Positions 8,701 through 64,000 of a DNA stretch of 64,000 bases are shown one piece after another. The translations under genes and the position numbers were made by a program. The DNA is from Perkinsus olseni. Taxonomy: Eukaryota; Perkinsozoa; Perkinsida; Perkinsidae. The stretch is from positions 85,944-149,943 of the forward strand of contig JABANP010000092.1 in the NCBI GenBank assembly GCA_013115135.1. The letters are read 5' to 3'. The first letter of the stretch is position 1; each line of letters starts with the position of its first letter. Under the pieces are notes generated by a model that was not told the origin of the DNA, searched no databases, and worked only from the letters and a program-made list of their open reading frames with translations.

Positions 8701-9774
8701 CATCTCGGGCGTCCTTCCGACTCGACCCCTCGTGGGCAGTCCGTCGCTGTGATAGTCGCCGGACGACCGGGATACGAAAAATCGATTTTATTGGGTTGCA
8801 CTCGAACCTCTGATAGGAAGACCAGGATGCAAGGTGAGAGTACCCCACTCCCAACGTCCCAACAACAGCAGCCCCGACCTCGGCGGCACAAGACATGGTC
8901 TAGCTTTGACACAGCCAAGACGACAGAGAGGAGGCACCCGCGACAGGAGCAACTAATGGACTCGGGGCCTCAACTCTTCGCCGCATCAACAAGACAGCCA
9001 CAGGAGAATCTTCCCCCTCACTCACCTCGATGGTGTCAGCGGCATTGGCGATGTCAGAGGTCTTCGGTAGAGGAAGCCTGACGAGTGTGACGATGGTCTA
9101 CTCGAAAGGGACGTGGCCACCGATCTCGACCCTACCGGAGCCATCGTGTGAGCAGCTTGACTTCGAGGGACTGGGCAACGATGGAGGCGTGAAGGGCGAA
9201 GCAGACAGATAGTAAAAGAAGTACAGTACTGGCAGCCAAGTTGAGAATCCTGAGGAATAAAAATAGACGACTGCAGGGATAGAACCCACGCCCTTCTAAT
9301 TGGAAGAGCGACGCCGTAACCCACTAGACTGGTCAGATGATACTCACCAGATGAACCATAGCCACGACGGGACTTCCTTCGGTTGAGGTATATCAGGTGG
9401 TATCATACCACAATAAATAGAGTGAACACTCACAGCAAGAGCCACCGAGTTGACAGTAAGGTACGTGTCCATCCTGGAGATAGTCAGACCAAAAAGATCT
9501 CTCAAATCCTCACGATACAAATCAATCTGAAAGAAGAACGCCTCAACCCGCGTCTCAGCGACAGCGTTGACGCCCCAGAGCACCACTGTAGTACTCAGAA
9601 GGAATGCGGCTAACCTGCCTGGTCAATTCGCATATCCTGGACTTGATGGACCGCCCATTGCCGCAGCGTTTGATCCAATACGAAGGCGGCCTTGTTATAA
9701 GAGAACAACGCCCCTGCTGAGGAGCCGGCCAGAGCAGCGACCCCCGCGACTGTTGCTGCAGCTGCGGTTGCCAT
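5784..9774 (-). CDS. Multipass membrane protein with WD-like C-terminal domain, copy A (frame broken)
   Basis: A multi-exon gene read from 9774 (ATG, MATAAAATVAG) down to 5784. Supported exons: 9612-9774; about 9605-9348 (LYREDLRDLFGLTISRMD plus a membrane segment); 9136-9249 (STVLLLLSVCFALHA); 9026-9077; about 8656-8817; 8477 to about 8613 (SWQGYDAYARV); 8215-8417 (two membrane segments around MLHLRMNLT); 7839-7961; about 7750-7790; about 7200-7350; 6909 to about 6990; 6757-6854; about 6560-6700; and a last exon with WD-like blades (GNIDIWNMADGR). About eight hydrophobic segments precede the WD-like part. Compared with copy B, three extra bases, each in a short A run near 6333, 6289 and 6216, break the last exon; its extreme C-terminus also differs. 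These are either decay or homopolymer sequencing errors. The family is unknown to me. Confidence 0.6.
6855..6908 (-). repeat. Module-I intron in copy A (54 nt)
   Basis: GTGAGT donor, ATAG acceptor. The intron carries the shared core TTGCATTTCCTCAACGG eight bases before the acceptor and two upstream copies of a CACTTGCAT 9-mer. Splicing (phase 0) joins QESCFKG to VTDPSIVREQ. Paralogous intron in copy B at 11281-11335 has one more perfect 9-mer. Confidence 0.8.
8418..8476 (-). repeat. Module-I intron in copy A (59 nt)
   Basis: GTGAGG donor, GTCAG acceptor, with ATCTTGCATTTCCTCAACG about a dozen bases before the acceptor and a second TCTTGCA upstream. Splicing (phase 2) joins FADFALG to STMMGDREVW. 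Copy C has an unrelated 360-nt intron at the same position and phase (21050-21409). Confidence 0.85.
9078..9135 (-). other. 58-nt intron in copy A
   Basis: GTAGGG donor and GTCAG acceptor. Phase 2 splicing joins LLTRWLR to LPLPKTSD, matching copy C (LLTQWLR to LPLPRTED), which confirms the boundaries. No shared module seen. Confidence 0.75.
9250..9347 (-). repeat. tRNA-like intron in copy A (98 nt, sense)
   Basis: Between the GTGAGT donor and CTCAG acceptor lies a tRNA-like sequence (about 9266-9336) with a D-arm-like TAGTGGGTTACGGCG, an anticodon-arm-like hairpin and a T-arm GTGGGTTCTATCCC. Pairing of the arms is imperfect. Splicing (phase 2) joins LWFIW to ILNLAAST. Copy C has an unrelated 348-nt intron at the same site and phase (23280-23627). 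Confidence 0.8.
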
Positions 9775-16235: not shown

Positions 16236-16333
16236 CTGAGGAATAAAAATAGACGACTGCAGGGATAGAACCCACGCCCTTCTAATTGGAAGAGCGACGG
16301 CGTAACCAACTAGACTGGTCAGACGGTACTCAC
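16236..16333 (-). repeat. tRNA-like intron in copy B (98 nt, sense)
   Basis: Counterpart of 9250-9347. Two base changes (GTTGGTTACGCCG here against GTGGGTTACGGCG in copy A) fall in the D-arm-like part. Confidence 0.75.
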
Positions 16334-27943: not shown

Positions 27944-28006
27944 CAGGTTAGACAGGCGGGTTCGACAGGCAGTGCGGTATGGAACAGCGCGTCGCTGATC
28001 CATCGA

Positions 28007-46987: not shown

Positions 46988-49900
46988 TCAACCTTCACCT
47001 TCTTGAGACGCTCTCGACGGTCGTGCACGGTGCTCTGGCAGAATCGGTAGGCAATCTGTGATGTCGATATCCTCGAAGTCATCAAAGTCATTCACACAGT
47101 CAGCAATCAATCTGAAAATCCGTCAATAACACTTTCTGACACCTCTAGCTACCAACCTGATCTTCCTCTCCTCCTGCATCCCTCCCTTCTTATTCTCCCC
47201 ACCATCACCAGTCACGGGCTGCTCTATCACTTCGAACAGCTGCAGGACGTTGCGCCCGCCCACCAGCACCGTCCGACCAGACAGACCCGCTGCCAACACT
47301 CGGAAGGGGTTCACTAGACTCTGATAAAATTCGGCGCTGTCAAACTCCCTCTTCGGCGATGACTGGGGCTCACCTCCCTGACGTCTATGGCGTCCCCCTC
47401 CCCAGAATCTTGACCTGACGAGGACGGCTTCAAACGAGATTTCGGTCTTTTCCTCTTTTCCTTTCGGAGTTTCCTATTTTCGAAAATCCCCCCTCCCCTC
47501 TTTGCGAGGACGAAATTGGATAGATCCCCCCCTAGTCTCGAGAGAAGCTCGCGGCCAGGATTAATCGATTTTCCCTCACTCCAGCTTACCGGAGGTAGCT
47601 TCCATAACGAAGTCCTCCATGCCTACTGTGGCTGCCATCGCCACTCGTATAGCCGGGGTTTCGAGTTCCACGGAGTCATGGTGCCTCCGAGTTCTGTAGT
47701 GATTGCCGGACTGAGCGCTGCGTTGAGGAAGAACCTGTAGGGAAGTAGCAAATGGAGTCCACAAAAAATAGAATTTCCGCAAATTTCCGCGAATTTTCCG
47801 ACCGGAAAAATAATACAGGAGTATTGAAGATGATGTAGTCGAGAATTACAACCCATAAATTCCTATCCACCGTCATCACCAGAGCAAAGGGCGTATCCAA
47901 AAGATCCGACAACCACCCGTCTCCGAGAAGCCGCAACAGTCGAGAGCTCCAATCCAGAGGCGATAGATACTACCTCGTCCAGTCTTAGGATGTGTCGAAG
48001 TGCCCCACCCTGGCCGATACTCTGAAAATGGATACGCATCATCATCATGACGAGGGGCTGCTACTTACGTCCCTGACTTCAACAACAGTTACCAGAAGGA
48101 CTCTATTACCGTGGGGGAGGAAAGTCATCAACCTGAAAGATATGCGGCTGACAGGTTAACCTACCAAGTGCAAGCATGAGCGGAAGATTCTCTCACCTTA
48201 TACATGCAGGAGCTCTGCCAAGCATGTCAGATATCACACACTTAGCCTCGAGGATATTGCTAGTCTCGGGAGGGGTGTTAGTCCACCCTCCTGGCTGATC
48301 CCCATGCCAGCACCACACAACCTTAGAAGATGCGTTGAGGAAATGCAAGATAGCAAGATTTAGAATCCTTACCACATCCTTCCCGTTTGTAGTTGCAAAA
48401 ATGTCTAACTTGTTAGGGTGTTGACAGATCGCTTCAACAGGATCCTCTGCCGTCTCACCTATAGGTCCCCGGTTCGATCCGACCACCCGGCATTTCTCCA
48501 CCTACCTTCCCCTACGACCGTGCTCCGTATCGGGTCGACCACGTATGCGTGGGAGGCCACCAAGGGCACCTCCCGTCTCGAACCGGTACCGCAAAGAGGC
48601 AGCTGAGGAGCGAGAGGTCGGCTAACGAAAACGGTCTCGCCTTTGACAGAGATAACAATCACGCTAACTCGCGGTTTCGTCCTTGCAAAGGATTCAACCC
48701 TAACCATATTCAGCAAGCTTCAAGCTAAGATTCTCTACGCCCTCCAGGCCTACATCCGCCGCCACTAACCTTCTCCTCTCCGCATCGAAGAACAGGGCCG
48801 TCTCAACAACTCCATTGGAGCGGACCTGACCCTCAGTCAGAGCCCAACTAGCCGGCCACGACTCCTACCACGCTCGAGCCGGCCACGCCCCACTTCTTGT
48901 CGCTCATGTGCTTCCCTTCAACGAAGTTGTTGATGGTGAGAAAGACTCGAGGGACGGGGCAGAAGGGCGGCTGAACGGAAGGATATTCTCTGAGGGAGGA
49001 TTTGGGAGAGATCTTCGAATTGCCACACCTGCTGGCTCCCGTCCGCATAGAGGTCATCACAGAGGGAGGCGTCGAGCGCGCTGCCTGAGAGAGCTCAAAG
49101 TGCCCATCAACTACCCTCCACACCAAGCCCGTCTAGCTCAGTCGGTAGAGCGCAAAGGCTCTTAACCTTGTGGTCGTGGGTTCGAGCCCCACGGTGGGTG
49201 TTTATTACCAATATGCCGCCTCTCATGCTTCTCCACATTCATCCAATCCGGCGTATTCCCCGGAGATTGATTAATTACAGAATGGTAGATCGACTGCCTC
49301 TCCACCGACCCTCCATTCGCCGGACTTTTGAAGGACAAATCACACGGACTCGATATCGGGCCCTGACAAACAACCCAGTCAGAATCTACCACCAAACGTT
49401 GAGGAAATGCAAGATTGCAAGATTCACCTCGCACCTCAGCTGCTCGCGCGTCAAACTGGAGCTTCCTAGAAGGCAGCACTGGTGAGGGGGATACGAATCG
49501 GCCGTCCTTGACTGAGCTGCCATCACCGCCCTCATGCTTCCGCTTCTCCGACCGCAGCCGATTCTCCTCATCTTTCTTCCTCAACTCTTCCAATTTCCTC
49601 CGACTCTCCTCTTCCACTTTCTTTAACCTCTCTTCCTCACGCCTCTTGGCAGCTTCCTTCGCCTCCTCGTCTTCTTGCATTTTCAAAGCAGCTTGGATGC
49701 GCAGCTCCTCCAAACGCTGGTTCTCCTTGTTCCGCTCATCAATCACCTGACGGGAGCTTCCTATCGAACACACCATCGATACCCAAAGCCTCGCTCTACA
49801 AACTCAGTTGAAAAATATTCGTACACGAATAAACTCATAAAAAGTACGACGAAATACACTTTCAAGTTCAAACTGCAGAGCTCTGTCACTTAGGATACTC

Positions 49901-52900
49901 TCCCACGGCCAAATTTTACCACCGATGATACTTTCCAACGACCATATCCCATTCTAATAACGATTGCATTCTCGTACGACATTTATTACTCTCCCACAAT
50001 CGACTTCAACAAGTGACAGCACGAGCCGGCCAAATCCCAAAATGCGCTCTCTTGGCCCAAACACTGCACAGGGAAAGAGATTGATTCCTCCCGTAAGCTC
50101 ACCCTCCGTGCCGCGGCGAGCAGCCTTGAGGTAGCTCGCTTTATCCTGTAGACCAACCAAATTTTATCAGCGAAAATCGCCAGCGTGCGGAAGACGCCTG
50201 AGAGAAGGGAGAGTGGACACCGAATGATACGAAGAACCCTCACTTGGATGCCTTGAGAATCTTGGGTAGCCTCTGGCAGATGATGACTGCATGCACAGCG
50301 CTTTTAAACCTTTGTCTCGCAACTCTCGCGAGAACTTCCTTGATGATATCCTCATCAACCTACAGGATGCAGACTTCAACCTATTTTGTATCTCCCAGAG
50401 TCAGGATATCAGGATACCCACTTGAGCTTCACCACTTCCCTTCAGCTTCTCCAAGAATTCCAACTGCCTCGCCCTCAGGAAGACCCTCGTGAGCCCAACA
50501 GAGAACTCCGAGGAGGGCATCCCCAAACCCGTGGAGGAGGGCGAGGATGAACGCGCGACTGAAAAATACTCGTTCCAGTTCAATTTTTGTTTCTTCTTGA
50601 AAAAATCTTCAGAAAAACTGTTACACGTCCAAAAATACTCACGTATCGCCAATATTATAAACCCAGGAAAATAAATTTAGAATATATAAACAGAATCATA
50701 CTACTAATGATGAAAATAATATACGACCGAAAAATCGGCATTGAAGAACTACCGGACCTCAACCAAGCTCACAAGATTCGCCACGGGTGCGGAACATTCA
50801 TCTTCGTCTCAAGTTTTCTCATAATTTTTCAAAATTAAATTTTATTGCCAAAAATAAAACCGACGGAGCTCCGTGCAGTGAAGGGAAATTTCGACACTTA
50901 CTCGTCCATAGAATGGAATCTTCTGGGCATCATATGCTTGTAACGGGTGACAAGGTCCTTAATCGGCAGTCGATTCGGGTAACCATGATGCATCATGTTC
51001 ACCAACTCCACCGTACCGCATTGTATCACTTGAGATAGGACATAACGCTGAGTAGGGAAGAAGAAATATCCGAAAAGGAAAAAAAAGGTCGAGTCACTAT
51101 CTAATTTCCTGTGTGCAAAAATTACAAGAATAATAGTACATTCGTATTTCATCCAAATTTTCAGCGGAAAAAGACTTCACCTCTGTTCACTTTCTCGTGA
51201 AAATTCCCCTTATCAAAATCTGCGAAACATTCGCATTTGCCTTACATCGACGATGTTCTGGCTGGGGAAATTCTCGAGGGAGAGTCGTATCTCACTCTAT
51301 CAAAGTGGTCAGGAGATTGTTGGTTATTCGGATTGAAGCATCGTATGTAATGCAAGCCCGTCTTGTCCAGCATCTTCAACATCTTCTCCAACTCATCGGT
51401 GAAGTGCTTCCGCACCGACTTGAACTTTTCACATTGCATTGAGCAACCCTGAAGGAAAGAAAACTAAACATGTATTACCATCTATACCCTAGAATTCCTT
51501 GCAGAGTTATCAGTTATAATACAGTACAAAGATCGTAATTACAGCTACCACTATGATAGTCTACGTTTCTAATACGTAAATAGCGGCCAGATACCATACC
51601 AGTATCATGATCATAAACGTGACTCACGCCATGTATTAGTATCAACTTCCGCGTATGTATTTGCATGAAGCTTCTACGCAATGAAGCTCAAATTCTGAAA
51701 ATCTCAGTTTCCATAAGAATTTCCAATCCTTCTATGACGAAAGATATCATACCGAAAATGAACCGATAGTAATATGGGACGCCCTTCCCACTAGCGCTAA
51801 GCGAAGCCGAGTGACGCAGCCCAGTGCGGAGAGAAGTCCCACCTCCTTATCGCCCAGCTCCTTAGCCCATGCATTAGAGCTTCCCAGTATGAGGCTCTCC
51901 ATCTCCGGTACCATTCGACCGTTGTTTTTCTCCATCCAGCCACTCGCCGTGTAAGTCACTTCCCCTGCGGAAGAGAAGAAAAGGGAAAATGCAAAGAGAC
52001 CAAATCATGCAAGAGCCACAATAGCTCACCAGCGTAATGGTTGATGATGAAGCCACTTGTGATCTTCGTGCGTTCAATTTTCGCGCCCTTGCGGAAGCCT
52101 CGGTTCGGCGGTGCTTTCTGTGGCTTCGGCGGCTTCAATTTGCATCCCGCACTACCATCGAAGAAACCGCTGCTGAACCTATGGAGAAAAACCGGTCTTG
52201 AAAAGTGCCCCACCTCGGGTTCGATCCGAGGACCTCCATCTCACCTCTCCAACGTATTTATCATCGTCCTCCGGCATTCCCCTGGAAGCTCTCAGGCAGC
52301 AGTCGTCCAGGATACTCAAAGCGCCACTAAAATGGGAAGACTTCCATGAATGGCAGAATAAAAGTTTCCAGATCTCTCACGAACTGTAACAGACGTCAAC
52401 TCCTCGCAAGCTCACGATGGATAATCCCCCAAACCCTCACAGTACGGCATGTCGTGAATGACCGATGAGCCCGTCTAGGACAAAGACGATTGAATTTGAA
52501 AAGTAATCACCTCAACAATGAAAGGCAAAGCTCACGGTTCACATCGTACGACCCCTCCCTTCCTTACTGTATGACTTTGACCGTGGGTGTGGCATCTGGT
52601 AAGGGTACCGACTCCCACTGTATTCCCTCTGCCTCATAGGCTTGCTGCTCTCTGTCCAGAACCTGCGTGCACCCTCAATCTAGACAACTCGAATGTTGTC
52701 CCTACTCACCTTGGAGACGAAGAACTGCTGAAGCCTCTCGTTGGTGAGGTTGATGAGCAACTGTTCGTAGGAGTTCTTCTCGAGGCTCTCGAACCCGTAA
52801 ATATCGAGAACTGACAGAACAACGGAGACTATGACATGAAACAACTCCACTGGGACGGCTAAGGCAGAAAGATGAAACAATTTTACTGGGAATGCACAGA

Positions 52901-55900
52901 GTCAGTGCCACTGACCCAACTGACAACAAATGAGTAACTTCCGATCACGAGAGCATTTTTAGTAGATCATAGCTTCTCTCTTCCGAATCATCGTCTCGCC
53001 CCAAAACCCCCGGGCGAGTTAAGGGCTCGACCTCACCGAGGGTAGAAGAACACAAGATATGCCATGAAAGTTGCTAATTGCAAGAGAACCCTTCCCACTG
53101 GTAAGGAGGAAGTTCCTAGACGGGCAGAATGATCATGCTCATATTCTCGTGAGAGCCTCCGGACCAGCATGGACCCTCATCAATGATCAGTCATCATATC
53201 AAACCACACAGCAGGCGGGTCCACCTAAACCTTCTGCTACCCTTGTACAGAACGTACGCTAACGGTATTAGCTGTAATACTCTGGTTGGACCTATCTGAT
53301 AGAGCTCGACGCGCGCTTTCAGACGGTATATAGCTTAATGTCATTTAAATACACGGAACATGTATAACCGTCATCTTCGTTCAGTGGGACACCCGCTACC
53401 CGCTAAAACATGTCACACTCGATGTCGATGCCTGCAACGGCCTAGTCAATCGCACCACTGGTGGGCCAGTGTCCCAAGGCCACCACTAATAATCAGTGAA
53501 TGATAGGGTGACACTGTTAGATGCATCACCAGTCTCTCCACCAGTGGGCCACTTAGAACAGTAAGGCCGCCGGCTGGAACAACAGTAGTAGTAGTACTGG
53601 GTAGAGCTGTCATAGTGAGGCCGACTAGGCCGAGTAATGTTAATAAGTTTCCGCTGCCGGGTTCGCTCCAATGTCAATGCTGGTCATTCCTTCCCTTGGG
53701 GATGGTCAACCAGCAACCCAAGCTTTTCTAGCTCATAGGACCATTCACGAACCGAACTTCGGCTACCGAAGAATATGCATAGGATGGCATAAACTCTTTA
53801 CGACCTAATTTCTAGATCCTCGCCGCAACGTGCTCAGAATCCTCTCCCGGGAGTAGAGCAGCATTTAAGACCTTATACCGTTCTTTCTAGATAGTCACAG
53901 ACATCCGAAAGAGGGATCTGACCATGTCATTGACCAGTACCGTCGCTGTTCCTCGCTATCGCGTTGAACAGCTCAGCTTGAGCTAAAGTCAAGCTTGGAT
54001 ACGCCTAATCACCCACTACATGAGGTATCATACATGGCAGGTTCCACCTAGGGCGTATCAAACCCCAAGTATGACACCTAATAGGTGGTCTCCCTCGCAC
54101 GAGTCACCGAATCATCTCGATAGTTCTGACGACTAGGGCTGGATGAAGACTCCACTGCGCCGTGGCGAGACCAATAGTTTTTGTCAGAATGCCGAAGGGC
54201 ACTAAAGGCTCGGGGTGAAGCTCGCTGCCACAGTTAAAGGAGATGAGAAACCTTTCCTCTATCGGAGAGGCATCAGTCAAAACCAAAACTTCGCTCCGCT
54301 AAGATTTCTAAACCCCTCCAATGCTACTTCCAATGTGATTGTAGAGTCTCTCCATATCATTAGACCCGTCATTATATCCCATCAGAGCATTTACCTTCTT
54401 TACGATGCGCTCGAATAATCGGGCATAGATTACTCTGATGAGTGTGTTCAGGGACTGTGTCACCTGATCCACAACGCGAGGTCCCGGGTTCAATCCCCGG
54501 CATGTCCACAAATACCGAATATAACACCGTCACGTGCACAGGCCCTCACCGAGTGTGAATCTTACCTGCTCCGGAGTCCGGGCTACTTGATATGAACTTG
54601 CAGCATTATTTAGCTTCATTCGACGGTATCTTAGGTCGAAGCCAATGCCCCACAAAATGAGCGGAGCGAAGGTTCTCACAACAGTGTTTTATTGAGCAGC
54701 ATCGTGTCCAATCCCAGAAGGGACGCAGCGTCGTCAAGGAGGAGGAAGTCGTTGGCTACTAAGTTCGAGGCTGACATAAAATATATTCCGGTTATCGGGC
54801 AAGATACGGAACAAGCCAGAACGGACCCCTACTCGTGTCCATTCCTCCTTGAGATGGCGGTTCCGGCTCCGCCTGACTTGGTTCTCCTCCAGCTCCCTCC
54901 TCATGACCTTCAAAAGGAAACAACAAGAATGACCACTACAGCGGCGGATCCTTAGCCTAGTGATTAGCGAACGGCGGCGCGTATCTTACGTCGACTGACG
55001 AAATAAAAACTGGAACGTATGATACGTTACGTATCCTACGTCAGATCCCTATATCCATATATCAAGTCATATAGTACACCATGCTCAAGACTAGTTTAAG
55101 ACTTGCGTTCAAATATGTACTTAGACATCAAACCCTGCAGCATCCGAAGTAACAGCCAAGAGCCAATTGGTGCTTGGAGATTCTCTAATGGAGAATAGCC
55201 AACAGCAGAATCACCTCCTTCCTCCTCATCATCATCCTCTTCCTTATCTTCTTCAAATTCAACTCCACCCAGCAACAACAATGCCGACACAATCGAGAAG
55301 ATATCACTAAGTCACAGCGTCTCCTCCACACCACTGACGTATCTTACTTTTGATCTTCCTCCGTGACTCCTACCGATGTCAAAGATTCGCCTGAAGTAAA
55401 GGAGGGATCGCTAACTCATTAGAGAACAACCAGCGGTAACATCAATCAAACGGGCGGCAAGGAATTCTCTCCGTCACAATTATTCCATGTTTATCAGCGC
55501 TGAGATCTTTGAATATTCCAACCCTTAATTTTTTCGCAAAATTCGCCCATGAATTTTTCCAGCGTCTCACAGAGCTCGGCAAATTTTGCAGCATCATGAT
55601 CACGCTGTTCGTTGCTGACAACGGACTCCCCGCCTTGGTTAGTGAGAACATAGTCACGACCTGATCGTCATGCCGGAAACTCGGGTCAACCTGAGATACG
55701 CACCATCGTCTCCTCTGAGCCTCAACGTCTCCTGCTGCTCCTCACTGCAACCAGCCAACAGCTGGTAGAAGACATGATAATTCCTGACAAAGTCAGCGTC
55801 ACTGCGCCACGAAATTCCTCCCCACCTCTCCCCCGTAGCGTGACTGGTGACCCTCGCACTCTCAAGCAGGAAGGGCGTCAAAGATGCGCAGACTAGGCGC

Positions 55901-56988
55901 CCGCTTTTAGTATACCACAACGACGAATACTTCCCGAACCTGGCCAAGGTAAAATAGCGACTCAGCAGCACTACCGGTAGAACTCTTACCGGCTACTATT
56001 ATTGTTTCTAACCGTCCTGGCGTTTCCGAAGGCCTCCAAAATAGGGTTAGCCCTTAGCACCTGCATGGATACGGTGCTACGTATCTTACCTCGAACCTTG
56101 CGTGATGCGAAATCCAGCAACAATATAGCGCTAATACGGATACATTCACTTCGGCCCCCCACCCCTCAAGAGCAAACCAGCACGCACCAGCCTCAGACCA
56201 ATATACCACACCCTCACCTTATCGTAGAGCTCCGTGACTGTGTGCTGTACTTGTCCCGTGATCGAATGGACCTGCCGGAAGGGAGGTCACCGTGGGTAGC
56301 AATAATACCACAACTTCCCCAAAAATACTTGCGGTGTATCTTCCGCCCAACCACTGGTCTGTTTCTTGGCCAGATACGATGCTACTATCTTAGCCGTTTC
56401 TGTCTTTCCCGCGCCCGACTCCCCAGAAATCAGGATCGCCTGTGACCGCTGCGTCGAAATCTGAAACCGATACCGCACCTTCTGCAACTCCCACCATCCC
56501 GGCCTTACAAAATTCCGATAGGCAGCCTCCGCGATCGCATAGGGGTGAGGAGGCATCGTGTGCGGCGGCTTCTGCCAGTACTCCGCCATCCTCTCCTCTC
56601 CCCCGAGCTGCTTGTACGGGTTCACAGCCAACAGCACGCTGCTCACGTAAGTGTATACCAAATCTTCACCATATCGCACTTCCATATTATGCAGAATATT
56701 CGCTTCGTCTATGTGAGTCTGCATGGTCACATCCGAGTGACCGCGAGCCTCATCAATCGTCTTATCATAAACTTTAATTTGATTTAACGGCACTATCTTC
56801 GTCCCTCCCACAGAAGACTTCCTGCTCCCCCCTATGCTCTTATCAGCGGGCAAATCCTTGAATTCGATATGCGCTCCCCTCGAGATGAGAGAGACGATCG
56901 TCGCCAGACGGTAACCGTGCCTTCTCCACGGCACCCAGGCGACATCCCCGGGTTGGAGAGACGGGAGTTCAGAAGACGTCGTCGACAT
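46988..56988 (-). CDS. Myosin heavy chain with WD40-type tail (class XXII/MyoF-like)
   Basis: Read from ATG 56988 to TGA 46988. Exons with myosin landmarks: 56509-56988; 56329-56460 (P-loop [12 protein letters not shown]); 55990-56060 ([20 protein letters not shown], switch I); 55826-55939; 55704-55783 ([11 protein letters not shown]); up to 55660; about 55210-55310 ([16 protein letters not shown]); 54683-54766; about 54566-54640; about 54330-54463 ([10 protein letters not shown]); 52711-52810 (LDIYGFE, relay); 52568-52662; 52245 to about 52324; 52030-52178; up to 51964 ([13 protein letters not shown]); about 51301-51430 ([10 protein letters not shown]); about 50902-51060; about 50430-50560 ([17 protein letters not shown], converter); neck exons about 50105-50355; coiled coil 49428 to about 49760; then propeller-like exons from 49084 down, including 48506 to about 48716, 48373-48458, 48197-48321 and about 47160-47314. 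An ATP-driven actin motor whose tail probably binds cargo. Class assignment is inferred from architecture. Confidence 0.85.
48322..48372 (-). repeat. Module-I intron in the myosin tail (51 nt)
   Basis: GTAAGG donor, CTAAG acceptor, ATCTTGCATTTCCTCAACG in the 3' half and a second ATCTTGC upstream. Phase 0 splicing joins TNGKDV to VVWCWHG of a WD-type blade. Confidence 0.85.
48459..48505 (-). repeat. tRNA-like intron in the myosin tail (47 nt, antisense)
   Basis: GTAGGT donor, TATAG acceptor. The plus strand reads GGTCCCCGGTTCGATCCGAC, a T-arm, and CACCCGGCA-like acceptor bases fill the rest. Splicing joins TVVGEG to [10 protein letters not shown] in frame; the alternative GTGGAG donor would create a stop. 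Confidence 0.85.
49085..49208 (-). repeat. Myosin intron holding a complete tRNA gene (124 nt)
   Basis: GTAATA donor seven bases from the 3' end of the tRNA-Lys, CTCAG acceptor on the other side. The frame downstream is [10 protein letters not shown] in the proposed propeller. Confidence 0.75.
49127..49200 (+). tRNA. tRNA-Lys (CTT), inside a myosin intron on the opposite strand
   Basis: 74 nt. Acceptor GCCCGTC/GGTGGGT with wobble pairs, D-arm with an A box matching TAGCTCAGTCGG, anticodon loop CTCTTAA giving CTT, T-arm GTGGG/CCCAC around TTCGAGC, discriminator G. One mismatch at the top of the anticodon stem. The B box (GGTTCGAGCCC) is near consensus. No CCA is encoded, as expected in a eukaryote. 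The downstream T run is only TTT, so termination is uncertain. Confidence 0.88.
49386..49427 (-). repeat. Module-I intron in the myosin coiled-coil end (42 nt)
   Basis: GTGAAT donor, GGTAG acceptor. Nearly half of the intron is ATCTTGCATTTCCTCAACG. It is a multiple of three with no in-frame stop, so retention would insert 14 residues. Splicing joins AAEVR to DSDWVV. Confidence 0.8.
51965..52029 (-). repeat. Myosin intron with a module-I-like stretch (65 nt)
   Basis: GTGAGC donor, CCGCAG acceptor. It contains TCTTGCAT and TCTTTGCATTTTCCC, relatives of the module-I core. Splicing restores the conserved motor motif HYAGEVTY, which fixes the boundaries. Confidence 0.8.
52179..52244 (-). repeat. 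tRNA-like intron in the myosin motor (66 nt, antisense)
   Basis: The plus strand reads CCTCGGGTTCGATCCGAGG, a perfect T-arm-like hairpin. GTGAGA donor and CCATAG acceptor. The exons are motor-domain sequence ([12 protein letters not shown] before, FSSGFFDG after). Confidence 0.85.
54464..54565 (-). repeat. tRNA-like intron in the myosin motor (102 nt, antisense)
   Basis: The plus strand reads GGTCCCGGGTTCAATCCCCG, a T-arm, close to the 3' splice site. Splicing joins ARTPEQ to [17 protein letters not shown], a conserved motor helix. Confidence 0.85.
55784..55825 (-). other. 42-nt myosin intron, in frame and stop-free
   Basis: GTGGGG donor, GTCAG acceptor. Removal gives GER joined to NYHVFYQLL, the conserved GERNYH motif; retention would add 14 residues. 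Confidence 0.85.
56461..56508 (-). other. 48-nt myosin intron, in frame and stop-free
   Basis: GTAAGG donor, TTTCAG acceptor. Removal joins AYRNF to [10 protein letters not shown] just before the P-loop, as in other myosins; retention would add 16 residues. Confidence 0.75.
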
Positions 56989-56999
56989 GACAGCAACAA

Positions 57000-58107
57000 T
57001 AGCGGCTCTTCCAGAAAGTATCTTCGAGATGTGTATTTCGCGCCCCCAGTAGTTGCAACAGCCAATACTGTTGTCGGCATGCGACCGAAAATTACCCAGG
57101 AGTTTCGAAAGATTTGGTATCGTAATTAGTCAGTTGTCGAAGATATTATTCACTGCTACAAATATTTATACTATGAAGCCCGGGTATCCCCGGCTCAACC
57201 GTCACGCGCCCTCTAATTGACCCAACTGGAACAAACCCTCAGCCGTTCTCACAGCGACATCTCAGATCCTTTGACATGGCGGAGTAAAGAGTTTGAAGAA
57301 CATCAACAACAGGAAGATTCCGACCAACAGCAGCCACGCTCTCGCCGAAGCCCGTATATATCGGAGACATATCTAAGGTCGAAGCACGCCCATGACGCTT
57401 TGCTCTTATCGACAACCCGATTCAGTCCCGGCTCAGACACGCAGGAGTCAACGCGTTATCGAGCATCCCATCGGAAGCGAAAAATTGTACAAATTACTAT
57501 TATATCAATTGTATCATGACACTCGCGGGGATCGAACCTGGGACTCTAATCTCGCTAGCGCAAGTTGCGGCCCTTCGCCGCGAAGGCCTAGTCACACACG
57601 CTTGCTACTGTTCTACTGTAAAAATTGCTGCTGTCCCGAGAGAGTCTGCCACTAGTACCAGTATCTTCCTCGCGACTTTTCTCCTCTCCTTCCTCAGTCT
57701 TCTTTTCCGAGGAGACAATTTCCCCCAAGACGGCAGCACCGCCCTTCTCGGCAAACGGGAGAACGCCGCGCCAGACGATGAGCCTGCAAGCCGTGCGGAC
57801 CGGTAAACCCCGATGACATCAACAACCATGATGAAAGAGACGCGAGAGACGTGCAAATAATATGGCACATTCTCCGCACTAGTATTATCAGCAAAAGGAC
57901 GCCGAACAATGACTACAAACTGGAATACGCTTTGCCAAACGATTGACGTTGAAACGTTTCCCTTGAACGCTTTGATGCAGTGCTTTGAACGAACACGTCA
58001 ACGACTGCGATAAACCGCGAATTTCGGTTACAGGCATTTTCTTGTGACCAGAGGACATGCCTCTCCCACCTTCCCACGGTCGTAAGAACTGCATCACCAG
58101 CGTAGGG
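57000..58107. other. Region between the myosin start and the membrane-protein gene
   Basis: The myosin promoter should lie near 57000-57200. An 87-codon minus frame (57605-57868) is Arg/Lys-rich (SPRKRRLRKERRKVARK) but unsupported. A tRNA-like sequence is noted separately at 57517-57594. Confidence 0.35.
57517..57594 (-). repeat. tRNA-like sequence with long variable region
   Basis: The minus strand ends CCCAGGTTCGATCCCCGCG AGTGTCA and starts TGACTAGGCC; a TGAC/GTCA acceptor remnant and a T-arm are visible, with extra length as in Leu or Ser tRNAs. Probably a decayed tRNA gene. Confidence 0.5.
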
Positions 58108-58977
58108 TTATTTAGAGGAGGAAGGGAGATTCCGATTAATGACTACCGACCGAGTAACCTCATTACCGAAGATGATGGCCGCAAAAGTTGCTTTAGCTGG
58201 TACCGAAGGTATCTTAGCTTCAACCGCGAGAAACATATCCGCGGTAATTACGGCAAGTACGACACTCATAGAGAATAGGACTACTCCGAGCGAAAAAAAT
58301 TGCAAGACGACCTGAAAGACGGGAAAATGCTGGATACCATTTTCGCTTCGCTCCGCCTACCCCCACCGGACGGAAACCCTTCTTCGGCTTGCGATACAAC
58401 AGTACTCGGAAAATCCTCTGCACCAACACGCCAAACGAAGCTGATACAAAGCTCGTGTGGGCCACTGGGCTGAAAGGAGCGCTCTCATCCAAAAAGGTCC
58501 CCGGTTCAAATCCTCCCCACACCCCTTCCCGGCGTACCTTGGCACCCTCCCGAATAAAGTAAGAGTGGCTAAATTACACGCCACACTAGGCAGAATTGTG
58601 AGCACTAGGGAATTCAGAAACCCCCCGCCATCAGTGAGGAACAGCATCAGGAAAGCTCGGCCGAGAACACAAGATACCATCAGGGCGACGCCGCCTGAAC
58701 GAAGAAGCCAGAATTACTGGAAGCAAGCTTCGACCTAAGATACTCATCATTCGCGTCCCCTCACGAAAATCCAAATTTCGATCATACTCAACTAGTTGAA
58801 TAGCAAAAACAGGTTGGTATCTTTTCTGCTATATGATAACGACGCCGATCTGATGCTGTTAAACCCCAATCCCGTCCTCTCCAACTCACCATAAGCGAAC
58901 AATGGTTCCAGCAGTACTCGGAATCCAATCTCCCAAGGCATGTCACACCTGAAGGGATTATCCACAGGAAAACTCAT
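58108..58977 (-). CDS. Multipass membrane protein, family unknown (5' end uncertain)
   Basis: Exons from about 58977 to 58889, 58538-58694, 58361-58451 and 58108-58311, with all three junctions keeping phase. The protein shows at least four hydrophobic segments: GGVALMVSCVLGRAFLMLFL, SLVLTILPSVACNLATLTLF, FVSASFGVLVQRIFRVLL and VVLQFFSLGVVLFSMSVVLA. Between the third and fourth is a basic loop (YRKPKKGFR). The stop is TAA at 58108. The true start is not found; upstream sequence (CDMPWEIGFRVLLEPLFAY) is also hydrophobic. No family recognised. Confidence 0.6.
58312..58360 (-). repeat. Intron with module III (49 nt)
   Basis: GTAGGCGGAGCGAAGCG at the donor and TTTCAG at the acceptor. Splicing joins GFRPVG to VVLQFFSLG. 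Confidence 0.8.
58452..58537 (-). repeat. Intron made of a whole tRNA-like sequence (86 nt, antisense)
   Basis: After a GTACGCCGGGAAGGG donor segment, plus-strand 58455-58523 is a full tRNA length whose ends GTGTGGG and CCCACAC pair perfectly over 7 bp; only GAG separates it from the next exon. Inside are a CAT anticodon-like loop and the T-arm-like CCCCGGTTCAAATCC, with mismatched stems. Splicing joins LFGRVPS to FVSASFG in frame. Confidence 0.85.
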
Positions 58978-59185
58978 CGACTACAACGACTCCTTCTTTT
59001 CGATACCACTCTTTTAATAGATCATCACCAGAAGAAGCGACCTTATCGAGCCACAGACAAGGCAGGGCCAGCATGGGTAAACGAAGCTGACTCGTCACGC
59101 TCTCACAGAGGTTGCTATTATGCCAGAAAAATAAGTATTAATCGATTATAACGATTACTCATTTGGACGATCGATTTGGTTCATC

Positions 59186-61729
59186 TTACCAAAATCGACA
59201 AATTAAATCCGAAAGGAACCCACCCAGTCGACTTACGCATCCCTGCTCCTCCTCTCCAAATAACTTATCTCCGTCACCAATGGCGTCCATCCAGGCAGAG
59301 ACGAGGGCATCGCCTAACAATTTCGTGGCGCGCGACATATTTCGCCCACTCACCTTGGTAACGGTGATATCGAGGATAGTTAATACGAGCAAAACCAACA
59401 GCCGCCTCGCCAACTCCGGAGGGTTCTTCATAAATTTGATGATGCACTCGGAAAGGATGATTTCATCTGAATGAAAGTCGGGTCGAAAACTCAGGACCGG
59501 TGAGCCACCGGTCGACCTCACCGGCGATGAGCCCAGGGAGAATCCTGACAGTAGCAGCTCGTCTGGCCGAAAATTTGCTCTTCATCAACAAGACAATTTA
59601 CAGTTCAAATCTTGAATGTCCACCAATAAAAATTATCCACCATTTCAGACAGAAGCCAGTGCTCACAAACGCTATCCTCAATAACTCACACCAAAATTCC
59701 CCCTCTCGCCGTGGGGAGCTCTGCGAAAACTGATTCCGAAGATTTTTAATCAGACAATAATCATCCTCAGCCAGATAACAGTCTCCCCTCACTACCTCCC
59801 ACCACCTCCCCGTCATCAGGCAAATCAAAATGTAAAGCCTTCTCGACTGGAGGACCTCCCATGGGTATCCACAAATCCCCCAGCTGATAGTCCTCATATC
59901 GCCACGGTTCACCTGAAACTCACCGAATCGATCGTCCGGGCACTTCAAAGTTGAAGCAAACGAGTCAGCGGGAAATATATTCTCGAAAGCTACTACCAAA
60001 ATTTCGTCAACTCGCCCGATCAAACCCAAAAAATAAAATTGCAAACCCTACTACAGGGTGCTGTCTATAGCTGCCCACTACTAACCAGATCGTTGCTTTT
60101 CAGAGCCTCTTTTCTTTACTTTGGTAAACCAACCACCTAACCGCCCTACTACTACCTCTCGCGTTGACCACAATACTAGCATACGAGCCTCTATAGGAAG
60201 GCGATACCCCCAGCCCTCCTTCACAACTCATCTTCTAAACGGCATGAAAAATAACACCCACACCAATTCCCATTTTATCACCCCCGCTTGCTCGACTTCC
60301 TCACGGTCCATCATCAATCTTCCCGCAGTAGCCGACAAAACATCGGGGAGGCTTGCAAGGACATAAACGACGAACCCTCAGAAGTTAGACGACGATTCTA
60401 TCACAAACTCCTTCCAATACAACGTCTTAGGAGTCCTCGAGCAAAAGTGCGTGAAAAATTCCGCCCACCGGTCGAACTCTCCAAAAGAGACCCAAATATC
60501 TTCCACTTTGGTCACTATTCGACTCAACCTCTGCGTATCTTCCCCGACTCAACCTCTGCGCATATTCCTCGAGCCAACCTCTGCGTATCTTCCACGAGTC
60601 AACCTCTGCGTATCTTCCATGAGTCAACCTCTGCGTATCTTCCTCGAGTCAACCTCTGCGTATCTTCCACGAGTCAACCTCTGCGTATCTTCCACGAGTC
60701 AACCTCCAACCCATCCATCCCAGATCCCACTATTAAAAAACGAAACCTTCATCACCGGATACCTTTCGAAGCTTCATAATGTGACCGCAGTGATGGGAAT
60801 TATATTCTTTCGCGTGCGCGACGTTTATGCAACTTTCCCAATGCCAATGTATTTTCTATTTCTTCCTCTCAACAGCCTCCTTGGCCTCCTTCGCTCCAAG
60901 AACCCTGAAACAACAACTCATCGATCACCAGGGCGCGCGCTTTTCTCCTCAACCCCTCACCTCGTCGAAGCCTTGTGGCTGCCCCCTTCGCCCATACTAG
61001 ATACAGACGACGCTGAGCTAGGCCGGCCAGACGCCGTTCGCCGTCTCTTCGGTGCTGGCTCCGCAGCTGCTGCTCCGAGGGGCTCGGAGGGAGGTATGGT
61101 GACGATGTAGAACCATCTGATAATCGTGAGCTTAATACGCTTTCATAAATTCACAAAACCACTTCCTTTGCAAAAACTTTCTTTTATTTTTTCTATTTCG
61201 AGATGCATTCTCCATTTCTGTTGAAGTCCATCGTTTCGCGCACAAAATAAATCAAATTCCGTTATCGATTCCGTCAACTCTCAAATACATTTCCCCAAAC
61301 CCCATCAACCTTAATGTTGGCGAAATTTTCCATTCCCATCGAAGCCGATCGGTTCAGCTTCTCACGGGCGCGCGCGAAAGTGAATCATATTTCCATCCGA
61401 GCTCTTTATCACGAAGCTCTATGCATCCTCTCCTCAATAATGGGTAAAGATACTTCTTACGGTATATCAACCGCACATCTTAAGAAAGGCCTTCTCTCGT
61501 GTACACGACAGACGTAAAAACACGCAAAGCACTTCTGTCACGAAAGGGGCGTCCCTCTAATTCTGACACAGCCCCTTACCGATGGTAAACGTGCTTCGGA
61601 TCGCTATCATCCTTCATCTTCTCCTTCGACGTTATCTTCCCCTCACTGCCATCATCCAGCATCACTTCCCGGCCCAACAGATCATCAGCCCCTAGCCACA
61701 CATCTGATGCAGAGAAGGGATGCCACCTT
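59186..61729 (-). CDS. Possible nuclear protein with TFIIS N-terminal-like segment
   Basis: Exons readable on the minus strand: 61580-61729 (DVWLGADDLLGREVMLDDG); 60961 to about 61107 (disordered, with the basic PKRRRTASGRPSS); 59807-59912 (EPWRYEDYQLGDLWIPMGG); 59522 to about 59600 (ATVRILPGLIA); and 59186-59466 (ELARRLLVLLVLTILDITV then TKLLGDALVSAWMDAIGD). The last resembles the helical TFIIS N-terminal/IWS1-type domain, with its ITV and final Trp, but the match is weak. The start, the exact 3' end and possible missing exons are unresolved; some segments could belong to separate genes. Confidence 0.45.
60524..60711. repeat. 25-bp minisatellite, eight units
   Basis: Unit TCAACCTCTGCGTATCTTCC plus five bases ending ACGAG, starting at 60524, 60549, 60574, 60599, 60624, 60649, 60674 and 60699. 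Only a few bases vary among units. It lies between exons of the minus-strand gene above. Because 25 is not a multiple of three, open frames through it carry a 75-base protein period and are not evidence of coding. Confidence 0.9.
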
Positions 61730-62047
61730 CTACCGCTGTGGCGTCAACTACGACAACAATTTACAAGGTATCTTTCTATGAACTATCGTTTCCATGGAAC
61801 GATGAACCACTAAAGGGCTTTCTACTCAGGTTATACGATTAATACAATTACGAGCTCTTCCGCTCGGCCCCTAAGAGGATAGGAATACCGACGGTCTTGC
61901 CAAATACAACAGCAACGCGAGAAACAGCCCTTCGACGGCTCCCGAAAAAAATACGGTTTTCCTGACATCTAGTAACGCATTATTAGTCACGTCTAACAAG
62001 GGTTCGAAACTCTCCCGCCATTTGCCAGCTTCAACCAAAGATCCTCA

Positions 62048-63708
62048 TCACCGACCCTTTATCTCCCCAGCCTTGATCCTCCGAGCTGCTGTCTTCACAC
62101 TCTGTGCCATATGCCCCTCCCTCTCAACGCTACTACCAGTCCACGCCAGCTCTACCGAATGCTGGGACCCTCCACCAACCTGATCAATACATAACCAAAG
62201 TATCCTGGGAAACTTTGGGAAAATCTTCCAACGATTCAACTAATATGGAAAACACAGCCATAGAGTGTCACTTAACGATCGATGATCGATTGCACCCTCA
62301 CCATTTCCAAGCAGGCCCCGTTCACGGGAATTGATACCATCCAAAACACACAGAGATTTAACGGTTTTTCTATCACTTCCAAGGAGACACTTTTCTCGCT
62401 AATAAGTACCACGCGAAAAGTCGATGCTTACTATATAGTAAAACTTTTATATAACCTACAAAGTGATTTCAATATTAAAATTTTAATTACATGATCAGTT
62501 CCAAATAAACCTAGACATTAGAAGACTCTTTTCCCGCCCTGAGTGAGAAATGTCAAATCGATCACGCGATCGATATCTCACCTGGAGGACAAACTTCGAC
62601 TCGAGTTGTTTACTTTGGACCAAGTAAGGCGAGAGTTCATCAGTCGCATCGGTAGAACTCGCCGCACCTGAACCACACGGTGTGGACTCTCTCCCGACCT
62701 ATTCTGTATCTTCCACAGTTCTACCTTTGGATATGTCCCGGGGGCAATTACCAAGCTGGTGAGTCTCACCAAATCCCCAGGTATAGAAATCCCCACTGGT
62801 CGTGCATGCAAGTGCCTAAAATGCCGCACCCAGTGATCGAACCAGGGGCCTTTCGATTACCAACTTACATGAGAGCCGCCAGCGGCGACATGTGTAATAT
62901 TTGTCAACTTCAGCTTCGTCGGGGTCGTCACATCTTCGCTTCCTCCGCCCAATCCAGAGTAGTCGCGTCGACCCCACGTGAACCTAATCCGTTGAGAAAA
63001 TGCAAGATTTGCAAGACGACCAAGATTCCCTCATCTTACACTTCTCCAGCCTTCGTCAATGCAACCGTATGGAAGCTTCCTCCCACTATTTCCTTCACCG
63101 GAGATCCAAGCGTGTCCGAAGCTAGACTACTGATTTCTACAGGATAACCTGTCATCAACCAGCATGACATAAAGATACCACCAATCAATCACGGCTAATA
63201 ACACTCGTACCACCCTCGTGCTTGGAATACGACCGATGCCATACCACTCCTTTCGTAATTCATCGAACTACTGACACTCGCCCTCACTGACCACTATAAC
63301 CACATTGCCCAGTTACATACAGCTGCATCAGAACCACCGAGGGAAGTCCACGACGCACGAGACAATTTTGATCGACCCTTATTATTACGGATAGGTTCGG
63401 CAGTTGTCTTGCCCAACCCAAGCTGCGCGAAGTTGTTCAGTCCGCAGCCAAACACCTTCCCCTCCTCAGTAACCAGGAAAGTACCTAAAAACCAACGTAA
63501 ATCTGTTTATGCTACTTTCCACTGATAACCAGTTTATGCTACTTTACCATTGACAACCGACGACTCAGTCTCCAAGTGAACGCGGATATCAGGCCAAAAT
63601 ACCCACTTAAAGATGCGCGACAAGAACGAAATTTGCCGCAAAATGGTTCAACGCACCTTGCGCCCCCTCACGAACGCAAGCGCCACGGAAACGCGCTTTC
63701 GACATCGT
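62048..63708 (-). CDS. RCC1-family beta-propeller protein
   Basis: Exons: 63389-63484 (TFLVTEEGKVFGCGLNNFAQ), 63040-63148 (GGSFHTVALTKAGEV), 62869-62983 (FTWGRRDYSGLGGG), 62725-62815 (TTSGDFYTWGFGETHQLGNC), 62582-62667 and 62048-62179 (GGGSQHSVELAW, stop at 62048). Intervening introns are 53-57 nt except the first and last. These carry the G-x-x-H-(S/T)-(V/L)-x-L and (Y/F)-x-W-G-x-(N/G)-x-x-x-Q-L-G elements of RCC1 repeats. A possible first exon is 63660-63708 (MSKARFRGACV). RCC1 itself is the nuclear exchange factor for Ran; whether this is the orthologue or an RCC1-like protein cannot be decided here. Confidence 0.85.
62816..62868 (-). repeat. tRNA-like intron in the RCC1 gene (53 nt, sense)
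   Basis: GTAAGT donor, TTTTAG acceptor. The minus strand contains GGCCCCTGGTTCGATCACTG followed by GGTGCGGCA, the 3' half of a tRNA. Phase 0 splicing joins AAGGSH to ALACTTSGD, a canonical RCC1 repeat. Confidence 0.88.
62984..63039 (-). repeat. Module-I intron in the RCC1 gene (56 nt)
   Basis: GTAAGA donor, ATTAG acceptor. ATCTTGCATTTTCTCAACG (one change from the core) ends 6-7 bases before the acceptor; further CTTGC copies lie upstream. Splicing joins TKAGEV to FTWGRRD. Confidence 0.88.
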
Positions 63709-64000
63709 AAATGAGTTCTACTCCCGGACTCCCAAAATATCGTCCCGCTGAAGCATTACAGTTAGCCGAAGCGTATACGCGGTCGAGCGGGCCTCGCTCC
63801 TTTTGTTCCAGCTCAGCGGGTGAGGATGCAGCTTGTAGGAGGTCGCTCGCTTAGCCCTTCTAGTATGCTTCAATAACACCGCCTCTTCCTCTAACGACAG
63901 GACCAACTCTCATGCCAAACACCCGGGTTCGATCCCGCACATGGCATCTACGGATCTTGCTGGTATTACCAGTAAGGTTCTCATCTCCACTGCCTCCGTG
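63709..64000. other. Right edge of the window
   Basis: A 62-codon minus frame (63718-63906) cannot be linked to a gene. A tRNA-like stretch on the plus strand (63911-63948) has a CTCATGC anticodon-like loop and CACCCGGGTTCGATCCCG T-arm, antisense to the minus-strand gene series, so it may be another tRNA-like intron of a gene continuing beyond the window. Confidence 0.4.

What the first reader, a model, noticed from the sequence alone, without database searches (positions are those of the whole stretch)
48459..62868. Recurrent tRNA T-arm sequences inside small introns of several unrelated genes
Seen: T-arm-like segments in introns 48459-48505, 49085-49208, 52179-52244, 54464-54565, 58452-58537 and 62816-62868, and also 9250-9347, 16236-16333 and 19216-19265. 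They occur in myosin, RCC1 and two membrane-protein genes. Most are antisense (at least six), some sense. In myosin and RCC1 the boundaries are fixed by conserved motifs. Established: tRNA-derived SINEs are common, and introner elements create introns in some protists. Inference: a tRNA-derived intron-generating element family, in both orientations.
Basis: partly seen in the sequence, partly recalled or inferred. Interest (0 to 1): 0.92.

Follow-up and report, generated by a model that had tools for sequence, protein, structure and literature searches.

The report
Introns made from tRNA gene ends
In this shellfish parasite (a Perkinsus), many small introns that interrupt ordinary genes look like pieces of transfer-RNA genes, in either direction, which suggests an unusual route by which new introns arise.

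Summary
The window lies in a 61.5 Mb Perkinsus genome (P. olseni or close). The tRNA T-arm core GGGTTCGAWYCC occurs 1,555 times genome-wide, against 22 for the reversed control. Of 63 sampled non-palindromic copies, 48 fall in predicted introns (29 sense, 19 antisense); introns cover about 31% of bases. Aligned copies show the 3' half of a tRNA gene: AGGTC, T-arm, seven-base acceptor strand, C72-A73, oligo-T terminator. Nothing further out is conserved, so there is no SINE body. Twenty of the 48 introns are at most 60 nt, most of them filled by this unit. In sense, the T-run is the pyrimidine tract; in antisense, its complement lies at the 5' splice site. Domain matches run across the splice in kinesin, dynein, SNF2, myosin and RCC1; seven long dynein and six kinesin paralogue hits lack the intron. 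The window also holds longer forms, including an intact antisense tRNA-Lys gene inside a predicted intron. Not shown: mobility, target-site duplications, an empty allele (13 of 13 second copies carry the element), or splicing in RNA. Best reading: an introner-like intron-gain route from tRNA genes, now mostly neutral relics.

The parts
48459..48505 (-). 47-nt intron made of an antisense tRNA 3' half: GTAGGTGGAGAAATGC, N7, antisense T-arm, GGGGACCTATAG
   Evidence: Profile score 31.0 in a predicted intron with exactly these ends; reading frame open across the join; no Pfam match for the flanking protein; intron also present in the second copy on contig C486, 98% identical
49085..49208 (-). 124-nt predicted intron, in the gene model that continues from the myosin, holding a whole antisense tRNA-Lys gene; the 5' splice site GTAATAAAC is the complement of the tRNA terminator
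   Evidence: Gene model only, no homology across this join; the splice-site reading is direct sequence reading
49127..49200 (+). intact tRNA-Lys(CTT) gene
   Evidence: ARAGORN; Rfam RF00005, 55 bits
52179..52244 (-). 66-nt sense tRNA-3'-half intron in the myosin motor domain (AGGTC, T-arm, acceptor, CA, CTTTT)
   Evidence: Profile 26.8 on the gene strand; Myosin_head match spans the join (residues 3-93, join at 28; 29.0 bits, under Pfam's cut-off of 33.3 for this short piece). The HMM had drawn a longer intron, 52179-52567
54464..54565 (-). 102-nt antisense tRNA-3'-half intron in the myosin gene; 3' splice site GACCTCGCGTTGTGGATCAG
   Evidence: Profile 27.6; Myosin_head match spans the join (residues 12-60, join at 28; 23.8 bits, under the cut-off); no PDB match for this piece. 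The HMM had drawn a longer intron, 54464-54832
58452..58537 (-). 86-nt antisense intron that is a nearly full-length degenerate tRNA, with a 7-bp acceptor stem GTGTGGG/CCCACAC
   Evidence: Sequence and fold (the rest of the predicted fold is not a cloverleaf); frame open across the join; no Pfam match for the flanking protein. The HMM drew it as 58441-58577
62816..62868 (-). 53-nt sense tRNA-3'-half intron in an RCC1-repeat gene: GTAAGTTGGTAATCGAAAGG, T-arm, GCGGCATTTTAG
   Evidence: Profile 32.6; RCC1_2 residues 5-30 span the join at 14 (31.5 bits, cut-off 22). The HMM had called this stretch intergenic
9250..9347 (-). 98-nt sense intron holding a nearly full-length tRNA-like sequence that ends in TTTTTATTCCTCAG
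   Evidence: Predicted intron with these ends, profile 26.9; tRNA likeness read by eye, the fold is not a cloverleaf
16236..16333 (-). duplicate of the 9250-9347 intron (same event)
19216..19265 (-). antisense tRNA-3'-half; 5' splice site GTAATATTGCAGGG at 19265; 3' end of the intron uncertain
   Evidence: Profile 27.2; HMM intron 19118-19265
17997..18034 (+). further T-arm element, antisense to a predicted minus-strand intron 17930-18238
   Evidence: Profile 19.7
57513..57550 (-). further T-arm element, sense, in predicted intron 57373-57652
   Evidence: Profile 24.5
63914..63951 (+). weak T-arm element, gene context not resolved
   Evidence: Profile 13.0

Best explanation
Copies of tRNA genes, mostly only the 3' half (from the anticodon arm through the T-arm and acceptor strand to the oligo-T terminator), were inserted into protein-coding exons in either orientation and became spliceosomal introns because their own ends serve as splice signals. 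In sense, the 5' splice site comes from a GT in or near the anticodon arm (for example GTAATCGAAAGGTC) and the T-run is the pyrimidine tract before CAG. In antisense, the complement of the terminator lies at the 5' splice site (GTAAAATGC, GTAATAAAC) and the pyrimidine-rich complement of the anticodon stem and variable loop (GACCTTTCGGTTACAG) leads to the 3' splice site. Shown here: anatomy, intron bias, both orientations, preferred splice distances, coding continuity across the splice in the cases tested, and absence from the paralogue hits named. Inferred: that insertion created the introns; that the source was gene DNA or a terminator-bearing precursor (T-run and no CCA after base 73); and that the copies are now neutral relics. 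The insertion machinery is unknown.
For: GGGTTCGAWYCC 793+762 against 12+10 control. 48 of 63 non-palindromic sampled copies in predicted introns, 29 sense and 19 antisense, 5 in exons, 10 intergenic. Unselected columns show AGGTC (48, 48, 49, 37, 50 of 63), C72 44, A73 42 and T 41, 47, 36, 37 of 63 at exact tRNA spacing. These also hold in antisense copies (A73 15 of 19) and, more weakly, in non-intronic ones (9 of 15), so the T-run is not only a pyrimidine tract; base 73 and the next two read ACC in 0 of 63 and ATT in 26 of 63. Splice sites sit at preferred distances: sense 5' site 8-22 nt upstream in 20 of 29 (7.4 expected, none of 100,000 simulations), antisense 5' site 14-19 nt in 8 of 19 (1.7 expected, p 3e-5); the 3' sites more weakly (15 of 29 against 8.2, p 0.004; 10 of 19 against 6.0, p 0.02); ranges chosen after seeing the data. 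Whole-intron patterns: sense form 66+45 against 0, antisense form 14+16 against 0; overlapping starts are counted apart. Homology: in seven of ten spliced proteins sent, one Pfam match runs over a join; ungapped PDB alignment over the dynein join; RCC1 and two myosin joins. The dynein intron is absent from long hits on 7 of 13 other contigs, the kinesin intron from stop-free hits on 6 of 14. An intact tRNA-Lys gene is itself inside a predicted intron.
Against: No empty allele: of 25 loci queried, the 13 with a second copy all carry the element there. No target-site duplication: repeats of 7 nt or more 5 observed, 4.9 expected. The outer T-stem positions pair no better than shuffled columns (49-65: 30 of 63, 31.8 expected; 50-64: 38, 37.1 expected), which intact founder tRNAs plus drift would not predict. 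Acceptor bases 66-70 are near random while their neighbours are conserved. Fifteen of 63 copies are outside predicted introns and several introns are much longer than the element. One of the 48 (L059) is a tRNA-gene-like copy. No intron hits in five other 10 kb stretches. Intron calls rest on an unvalidated gene model; no transcript data.
Confidence: 0.68

Rival explanations
1. tRNA pseudogenes or tRNA-derived repeats insert everywhere and survive mainly in introns that already existed, because insertions in exons are purged. The introns are older than the tRNA pieces.
For: 10 of 63 sampled copies are intergenic and some introns extend far beyond the element, e.g. L020, L025, L033, L061, L077. 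No empty allele was found. Tandem tRNA-like copies occur in L070 (letters printed, read by eye).
Against: Twenty of 48 introns are at most 60 nt and leave little room for a previous intron. Splice sites sit at preferred distances from the T-arm in both orientations. Several dynein and kinesin paralogues have no intron at the site. Introns and intergenic DNA have similar totals of bases, yet hold 48 against 10 copies (p about 5e-7).
Confidence: 0.22
2. The T-arm/B-box and terminator are kept by selection as a working intronic signal (a TFIIIC site, a pol III transcript or a splicing hairpin), whatever their origin.
For: The acceptor part diverges faster between second copies (9 of 49 sites) than the T-arm and the rest of the intron (17 of 240; Fisher p 0.02). 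B-box and terminator blocks are conserved around random acceptor bases.
Against: The T-arm diverges like the rest of the intron (8 of 119 against 9 of 121) and no slower than the flanks (133 of 2666). T-stem positions do not covary. RF00005 gave no match at E up to 5 in 20 element loci.
Confidence: 0.08
3. Chance resemblance in GC-rich short introns.
For: The T-arm core is short and TTCGAA is palindromic.
Against: About 70-fold over the reversed control genome-wide; 111 whole-intron pattern matches (overlapping starts counted apart) against 0.
Confidence: 0.01

Closest known systems
Introners (Gozashti et al. 2022, PMC9860276; Micromonas, Symbiodinium, Aureococcus, ascomycetes)
   Same: Many short introns of common origin spread over unrelated genes, with splice sites carried by or recruited at the element ends; aquatic protist host; my estimated copy number lies within the reported range (5 to more than 2,000 per family).
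   Different: The abstract calls most families consistent with DNA transposition; ascomycete ones were read as RNA-based (passages). tRNA, SINE and Perkinsus do not occur in the main text. Here the unit is a tRNA 3' half with a pol III terminator, no TSD was detected, it occurs in both orientations, and its acceptor bases differ from copy to copy.
Amoebophrya introner elements (PMC7789003)
   Same: Dinozoan relative with many repeated introns.
   Different: Those have 8-20 nt inverted repeats and 3-5 nt direct repeats in non-canonical introns (passages). Here GT-AG (set by the gene model) and no excess of direct repeats.
tRNA-derived SINEs
   Same: tRNA-related sequence dispersed in genes in either direction.
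   Different: No body or tail conserved beyond the tRNA part; the 5' half with the A box is usually missing, whereas SINEs keep a tRNA 5' head with A and B boxes (recalled).
p-SINE1-like intron of the rice CatA catalase gene (Iwamoto et al. 1999)
   Same: A single reported intron resembling a SINE of tRNA type (tRNA type recalled).
   Different: Known to me only from a reference title quoted in PMC3151243: one gene in one plant group, not a genome-wide set.

Membership tests
Introner | Similar introns at many unrelated positions in one genome | tested here: met
   similarity is limited to about 25-38 nt
Introner | Similarity reaches the splice sites | tested here: met
   splice sites at preferred distances; short introns filled by the unit; not so in the longer introns
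Introner | Insertion creates the intron: empty orthologous or paralogous sites | tested here: inconclusive
   paralogue hits without the intron, but all 13 second copies filled; no other species' DNA available
Introner | TSD and/or TIR (DNA-type introners) | tested here: not met
   direct-repeat test negative; no end conservation beyond the tRNA part; TIRs were not tested separately. Families without TSD/TIR exist
Introner | Spliced in mRNA | not testable with these tools
   only indirect: protein continuity
tRNA-derived SINE | tRNA-like B box | tested here: met
   (selected for by the search pattern)
tRNA-derived SINE | A box and tRNA 5' half | tested here: not met
   no conservation upstream of about -14; 5' acceptor pairing at tRNA distance 17 of 63, 12.6 expected, p 0.10; a few full-length forms exist in the window
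tRNA-derived SINE | shared tRNA-unrelated body or tail | tested here: not met
tRNA-derived SINE | target-site duplications | tested here: not met
functional tRNA gene | cloverleaf recognised by the tRNA model | tested here: not met
   no RF00005 match in 20 element loci at E up to 5; in the window met only for 49127-49200

The most novel reading that the evidence does not exclude
A class of introner of pol III origin: terminator-bearing 3' halves of tRNA genes have generated on the order of a thousand or more introns in one Perkinsus genome. They work in both orientations because the oligo-T terminator reads as a pyrimidine tract one way and as part of a 5' splice site the other way.
Probability: 0.55. 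Interest if true: 0.86.

Novelty: new variant of a known kind. Interest (0 to 1): 0.74.

Why it matters
Where new introns come from is an old question, and the known large-scale sources are transposon-like introners. A tRNA-gene source would add a Pol III-linked route, explain how one short sequence can yield a working intron in either direction, and give a test set (P. olseni, P. marinus and P. chesapeaki) in which gain can be dated. It would also mean that tRNA finders and intron annotation should be read together in such genomes.

Tried and rejected
SINE body or tail: none conserved outside about -14 to +27 around the T-arm. Acceptor stem pairing with an upstream 5' strand: mean best pairs 5.54 against 5.39 (sd 0.07), a weak excess, and 17 of 63 against 12.6 at tRNA distance (p 0.10). 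T-stem covariation: none seen. Target-site duplications: none seen. Clusters of shared acceptor sequences: 12 pairs with 6 or more of 7 identical, 11.4 expected. Real tRNA genes as yardstick: the A-box/B-box pattern returned 76 matches but no letters, so matching acceptors to real tRNAs was not done beyond looking at the ARAGORN hits. Protein match for one myosin join in the PDB: none; Pfam matched it under its cut-off.

Rows dropped: 16 palindromic rows (8 sites) were left out of the orientation counts. With them, 50 of 71 sampled sites are in predicted introns, 6 in exons and 15 intergenic. The sample is 79 of the 1,555 hits, the first listed (contigs C1-C20), not a random draw. Gene-model errors seen by eye: L045 and L012 look like missed introns; the HMM ends of the L018, 52179, 54464 and 58452 introns differ from those that I read by hand; the 33-nt L062 intron is probably drawn too short; 62816 was called intergenic.
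Full report
WHAT THE GENOME IS. The window is part of contig C912 of an unnamed 61.5 Mb assembly of 968 contigs. A predicted glutamate decarboxylase from it matches Perkinsus olseni at 94%, P. marinus (partial) at 87% and P. chesapeaki at 82% (BLAST local identities), so it is a Perkinsus, P. olseni or very close to it. This rests on one protein.

CHECK OF THE OBSERVATION. The listed places carry T-arm-like sequence. In the window the relaxed B-box pattern occurs 29 times against 15.6 expected and at most 27 in 100 shuffles. The exact core GGGTTCGAWYCC occurs 793 times forward and 762 reverse in the whole genome, against 12 and 10 for the reversed pattern. Some of these are real tRNA genes, and palindromic sites are counted twice.

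GENE MODEL. No annotation was available, so I trained a 13-state gene HMM on the window and the fetched loci (the first run stopped with a programming error). It converged on ordinary signals, AG|GTRAG and TTTTNTCAG|GT, with 672 introns and a lower quartile of 48 nt. It is not validated by transcripts and makes errors, some noted under Tried and rejected.

INTRON BIAS. I fetched DNA around the first 79 of the 1,555 hits and, leaving out 16 palindromic rows (8 sites), classified 63 copies: 48 in predicted introns, 5 in exons, 10 intergenic. One of the 48 (L059) is a tRNA-gene-like copy with an insertion. Introns cover 30-31% of bases in the window and in five other 10 kb stretches. Against that share the binomial p is about 2e-13; against the intron share of non-coding DNA alone it is about 5e-7. 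Orientation is 29 sense and 19 antisense, not different from even (p 0.19). A profile scan of 114 kb that did not start from the strict core found 10 of 276 introns with a hit, against 0.1 in shuffled introns. By density that is 2.90 per 10 kb in introns, 0.43 in exons and 0.30 in intergenic DNA. The five other stretches had two hits in predicted exons and none in introns. The genome-wide share therefore rests on the strict-core sample. Scaled to the genome it implies roughly a thousand introns with the strict core, and more if decayed copies are counted; this is an extrapolation.

ANATOMY. Aligned on the T-arm, the 63 copies show unselected conservation exactly where a tRNA gene has it: AGGTC just before the T-stem (48, 48, 49, 37 and 50 of 63), then the T-arm, then seven acceptor positions of which 66-70 are close to random, 71 is G in 38, 72 is C in 44, the discriminator is A in 42, and four T follow in 41, 47, 36 and 37 of 63. 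Nothing is conserved further out, so there is no SINE body. Base 73 and the next two read ATT in 26 of 63 and ACC in none, so the source carried a terminator, not a mature CCA end. These columns hold in sense, antisense and, more weakly, non-intronic copies. The T-run is therefore not just a pyrimidine tract.

SPLICE SITES. Twenty of the 48 introns are at most 60 nt long (14 sense, 6 antisense; range 33-60), and most of these consist of the unit. Sense examples read GTAAGCGAAAGGTCGTGGGTTCGATTCCCGGTATCCCTCCTCCTCAG and GTATGGTGGATTAGGTCCCGGGTTCGATTCCCAGTACCTGCATTTTTTCTCAG. An antisense example is GTGAGTAGTGTCGAGGCTGGGGATCGAACCCACGACCTTTCGGTTACAG. Under uniform placement in introns of the same lengths, the sense 5' site should fall 8-22 nt upstream in 7.4 of 29; it does in 20. 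The antisense 5' site should fall 14-19 nt upstream in 1.7 of 19; it does in 8. The 3' sites show the same more weakly (15 of 29 against 8.2; 10 of 19 against 6.0). These ranges were chosen after seeing the data. A whole-intron sense pattern occurs 66+45 times and an antisense one 14+16 times, with 0 in the reversed controls; overlapping starts are counted apart, and the sense list includes duplicated segments and one repeated unit, so distinct sites are fewer.

ARE THEY INTRONS? In seven of ten spliced proteins that I sent, a single Pfam match covers a join: kinesin, response regulator, pyridoxal decarboxylase, choline kinase, HATPase, SNF2 and dynein. In the choline kinase this holds for one of its two joins; the kinase L033 matched, but its best stretch did not cover a join; two of the ten had no match. 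The dynein join aligns without a gap to a solved dynein, the SNF2 join with a one-residue gap nearby. Perkinsus decarboxylases run straight across the join of L019. In the window, an RCC1_2 match over its cut-off covers the join at 62816, and Myosin_head matches under the cut-off (23.8 and 29.0 against 33.3 bits, short pieces) cover those at 54464 and 52179. The frames are open across 48459 and 58452, but those proteins have no Pfam match.

GAIN OR OLD INTRON? The dynein search touched 13 other contigs. On seven of them (C889, C834, C168, C520, C535, C71, C501; the last with two stops in its frame) one long hit runs across the site without an intron; five more are covered by shorter hits; C59 is interrupted at the site by a 250-nt intron whose boundary is one base away. 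The kinesin search touched 14 other contigs: on six a stop-free hit runs across the site, on the others the hit has stops, is short on one side, or misses the site. This fits gain in single paralogues, though loss is not excluded. Against recent activity: of 25 loci queried, 13 have second copies elsewhere, 90-99% identical, and all 13 carry the element. Seven of these were read letter by letter, six were judged by the span of the hit. Direct repeats flanking the elements are no commoner than in shuffled pairs.

SELECTION OR RELIC? Between second copies of seven introns the T-arm differs at 8 of 119 sites, the rest of the intron at 9 of 121, flanks at 133 of 2666, the acceptor at 9 of 49 and the splice-site ends at 2 of 63. 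The faster acceptor (p 0.02 against T-arm plus rest) rests on few sites, four of them from one locus. T-stem positions 49-65 and 50-64 pair no better than shuffled columns, nor clearly in the 31 copies with an exact register (49-65: 18 against 14.9, p 0.20; 50-64: 16 against 16.7). The tRNA covariance model gave no match at E up to 5 in 20 element loci. I read them as unconstrained relics.

A SERIES IN THE WINDOW. The predicted intron at 49085-49208 holds an intact tRNA-Lys gene, antisense, whose terminator complement forms the 5' splice site GTAATAAAC. The 86-nt intron at 58452-58537 is a degenerate, nearly full-length antisense tRNA with a seven-pair acceptor stem. The 98-nt intron at 9250-9347 is a sense one, by eye. 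The other listed ones are 3' halves. This series is the best hint that the source is tRNA genes as a class rather than one element.

WHAT REMAINS UNEXPLAINED. Why acceptor bases 66-70 are random between conserved blocks, and why T-stem partners do not match, is not explained by intact founder tRNAs plus drift. Mixed origin of the two halves, or faster change of the acceptor, are possible. I could not compare with the full tRNA set of the genome.

KNOWN WORK. Introners are the closest kind. In Gozashti et al. 2022 (abstract, section 7 and search passages seen) neither tRNA, SINE nor Perkinsus occurs in the main text; supplements were not seen. The Amoebophrya introners (passages) have inverted and direct repeats and differ. 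I saw no paper on tRNA-derived introns in Perkinsus in the listings; that library holds only openly licensed papers and long lists were capped. A SINE-like intron in a rice catalase gene is known to me only from a cited title.

VERDICT. The feature is real and far beyond chance. Origin from tRNA gene ends and bidirectional use as introns are well supported by anatomy. Insertion as the cause is likely but not proven. New variant of a known kind.

Noticed in passing
window 6862, 8431, 11288, 12684, 48333, 49397, 62990 (all minus strand): A second intronic motif, CTTGCATTTCCTCAACG, overlapping a likely branch point; introns such as GTGAGGAGCATCTTGCACTCTTGTCGTATCTTGCATTTCCTTAACGGTTCATCTGGCAG. Six of the seven window copies lie in same-strand predicted introns (the seventh was not tested); of three copies in other loci one did and two did not. 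The 16-mer occurs 114+112 times genome-wide against 0 for the reversed control. It looks like a separate introner-like family.
   Followed up: partly
window 12789-15509: Insert flanked by 134-nt inverted repeats, 99% complementary, 2.45 kb apart, with long open frames and no Pfam match: probably a DNA transposon.
   Followed up: partly
window 8000-10606, with copies at 12258-12762 and 15503-17584: Duplicated gene segments, 88-98% identical; they duplicate one tRNA-like intron.
   Followed up: yes
window 25071-29492: Retroelement-like open frames with a reverse transcriptase match (RVT_1, E 0.0003, below Pfam's cut-off).
   Followed up: no
L070 (G000 C16:130600-131400): Several tRNA-like T-arm units in tandem, interleaved with repeated flanks (letters).
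   Followed up: no
G000 contigs C12, C25, C192, C214, C233, C288, C334: A repeated 61-nt tRNA-like unit (e.g. C214:47387-47447) in seven listed places; unlike the introns it is very similar between copies.
   Followed up: no
window 60520-60706: Tandem repeat of 25 nt, 7.5 copies.
   Followed up: no
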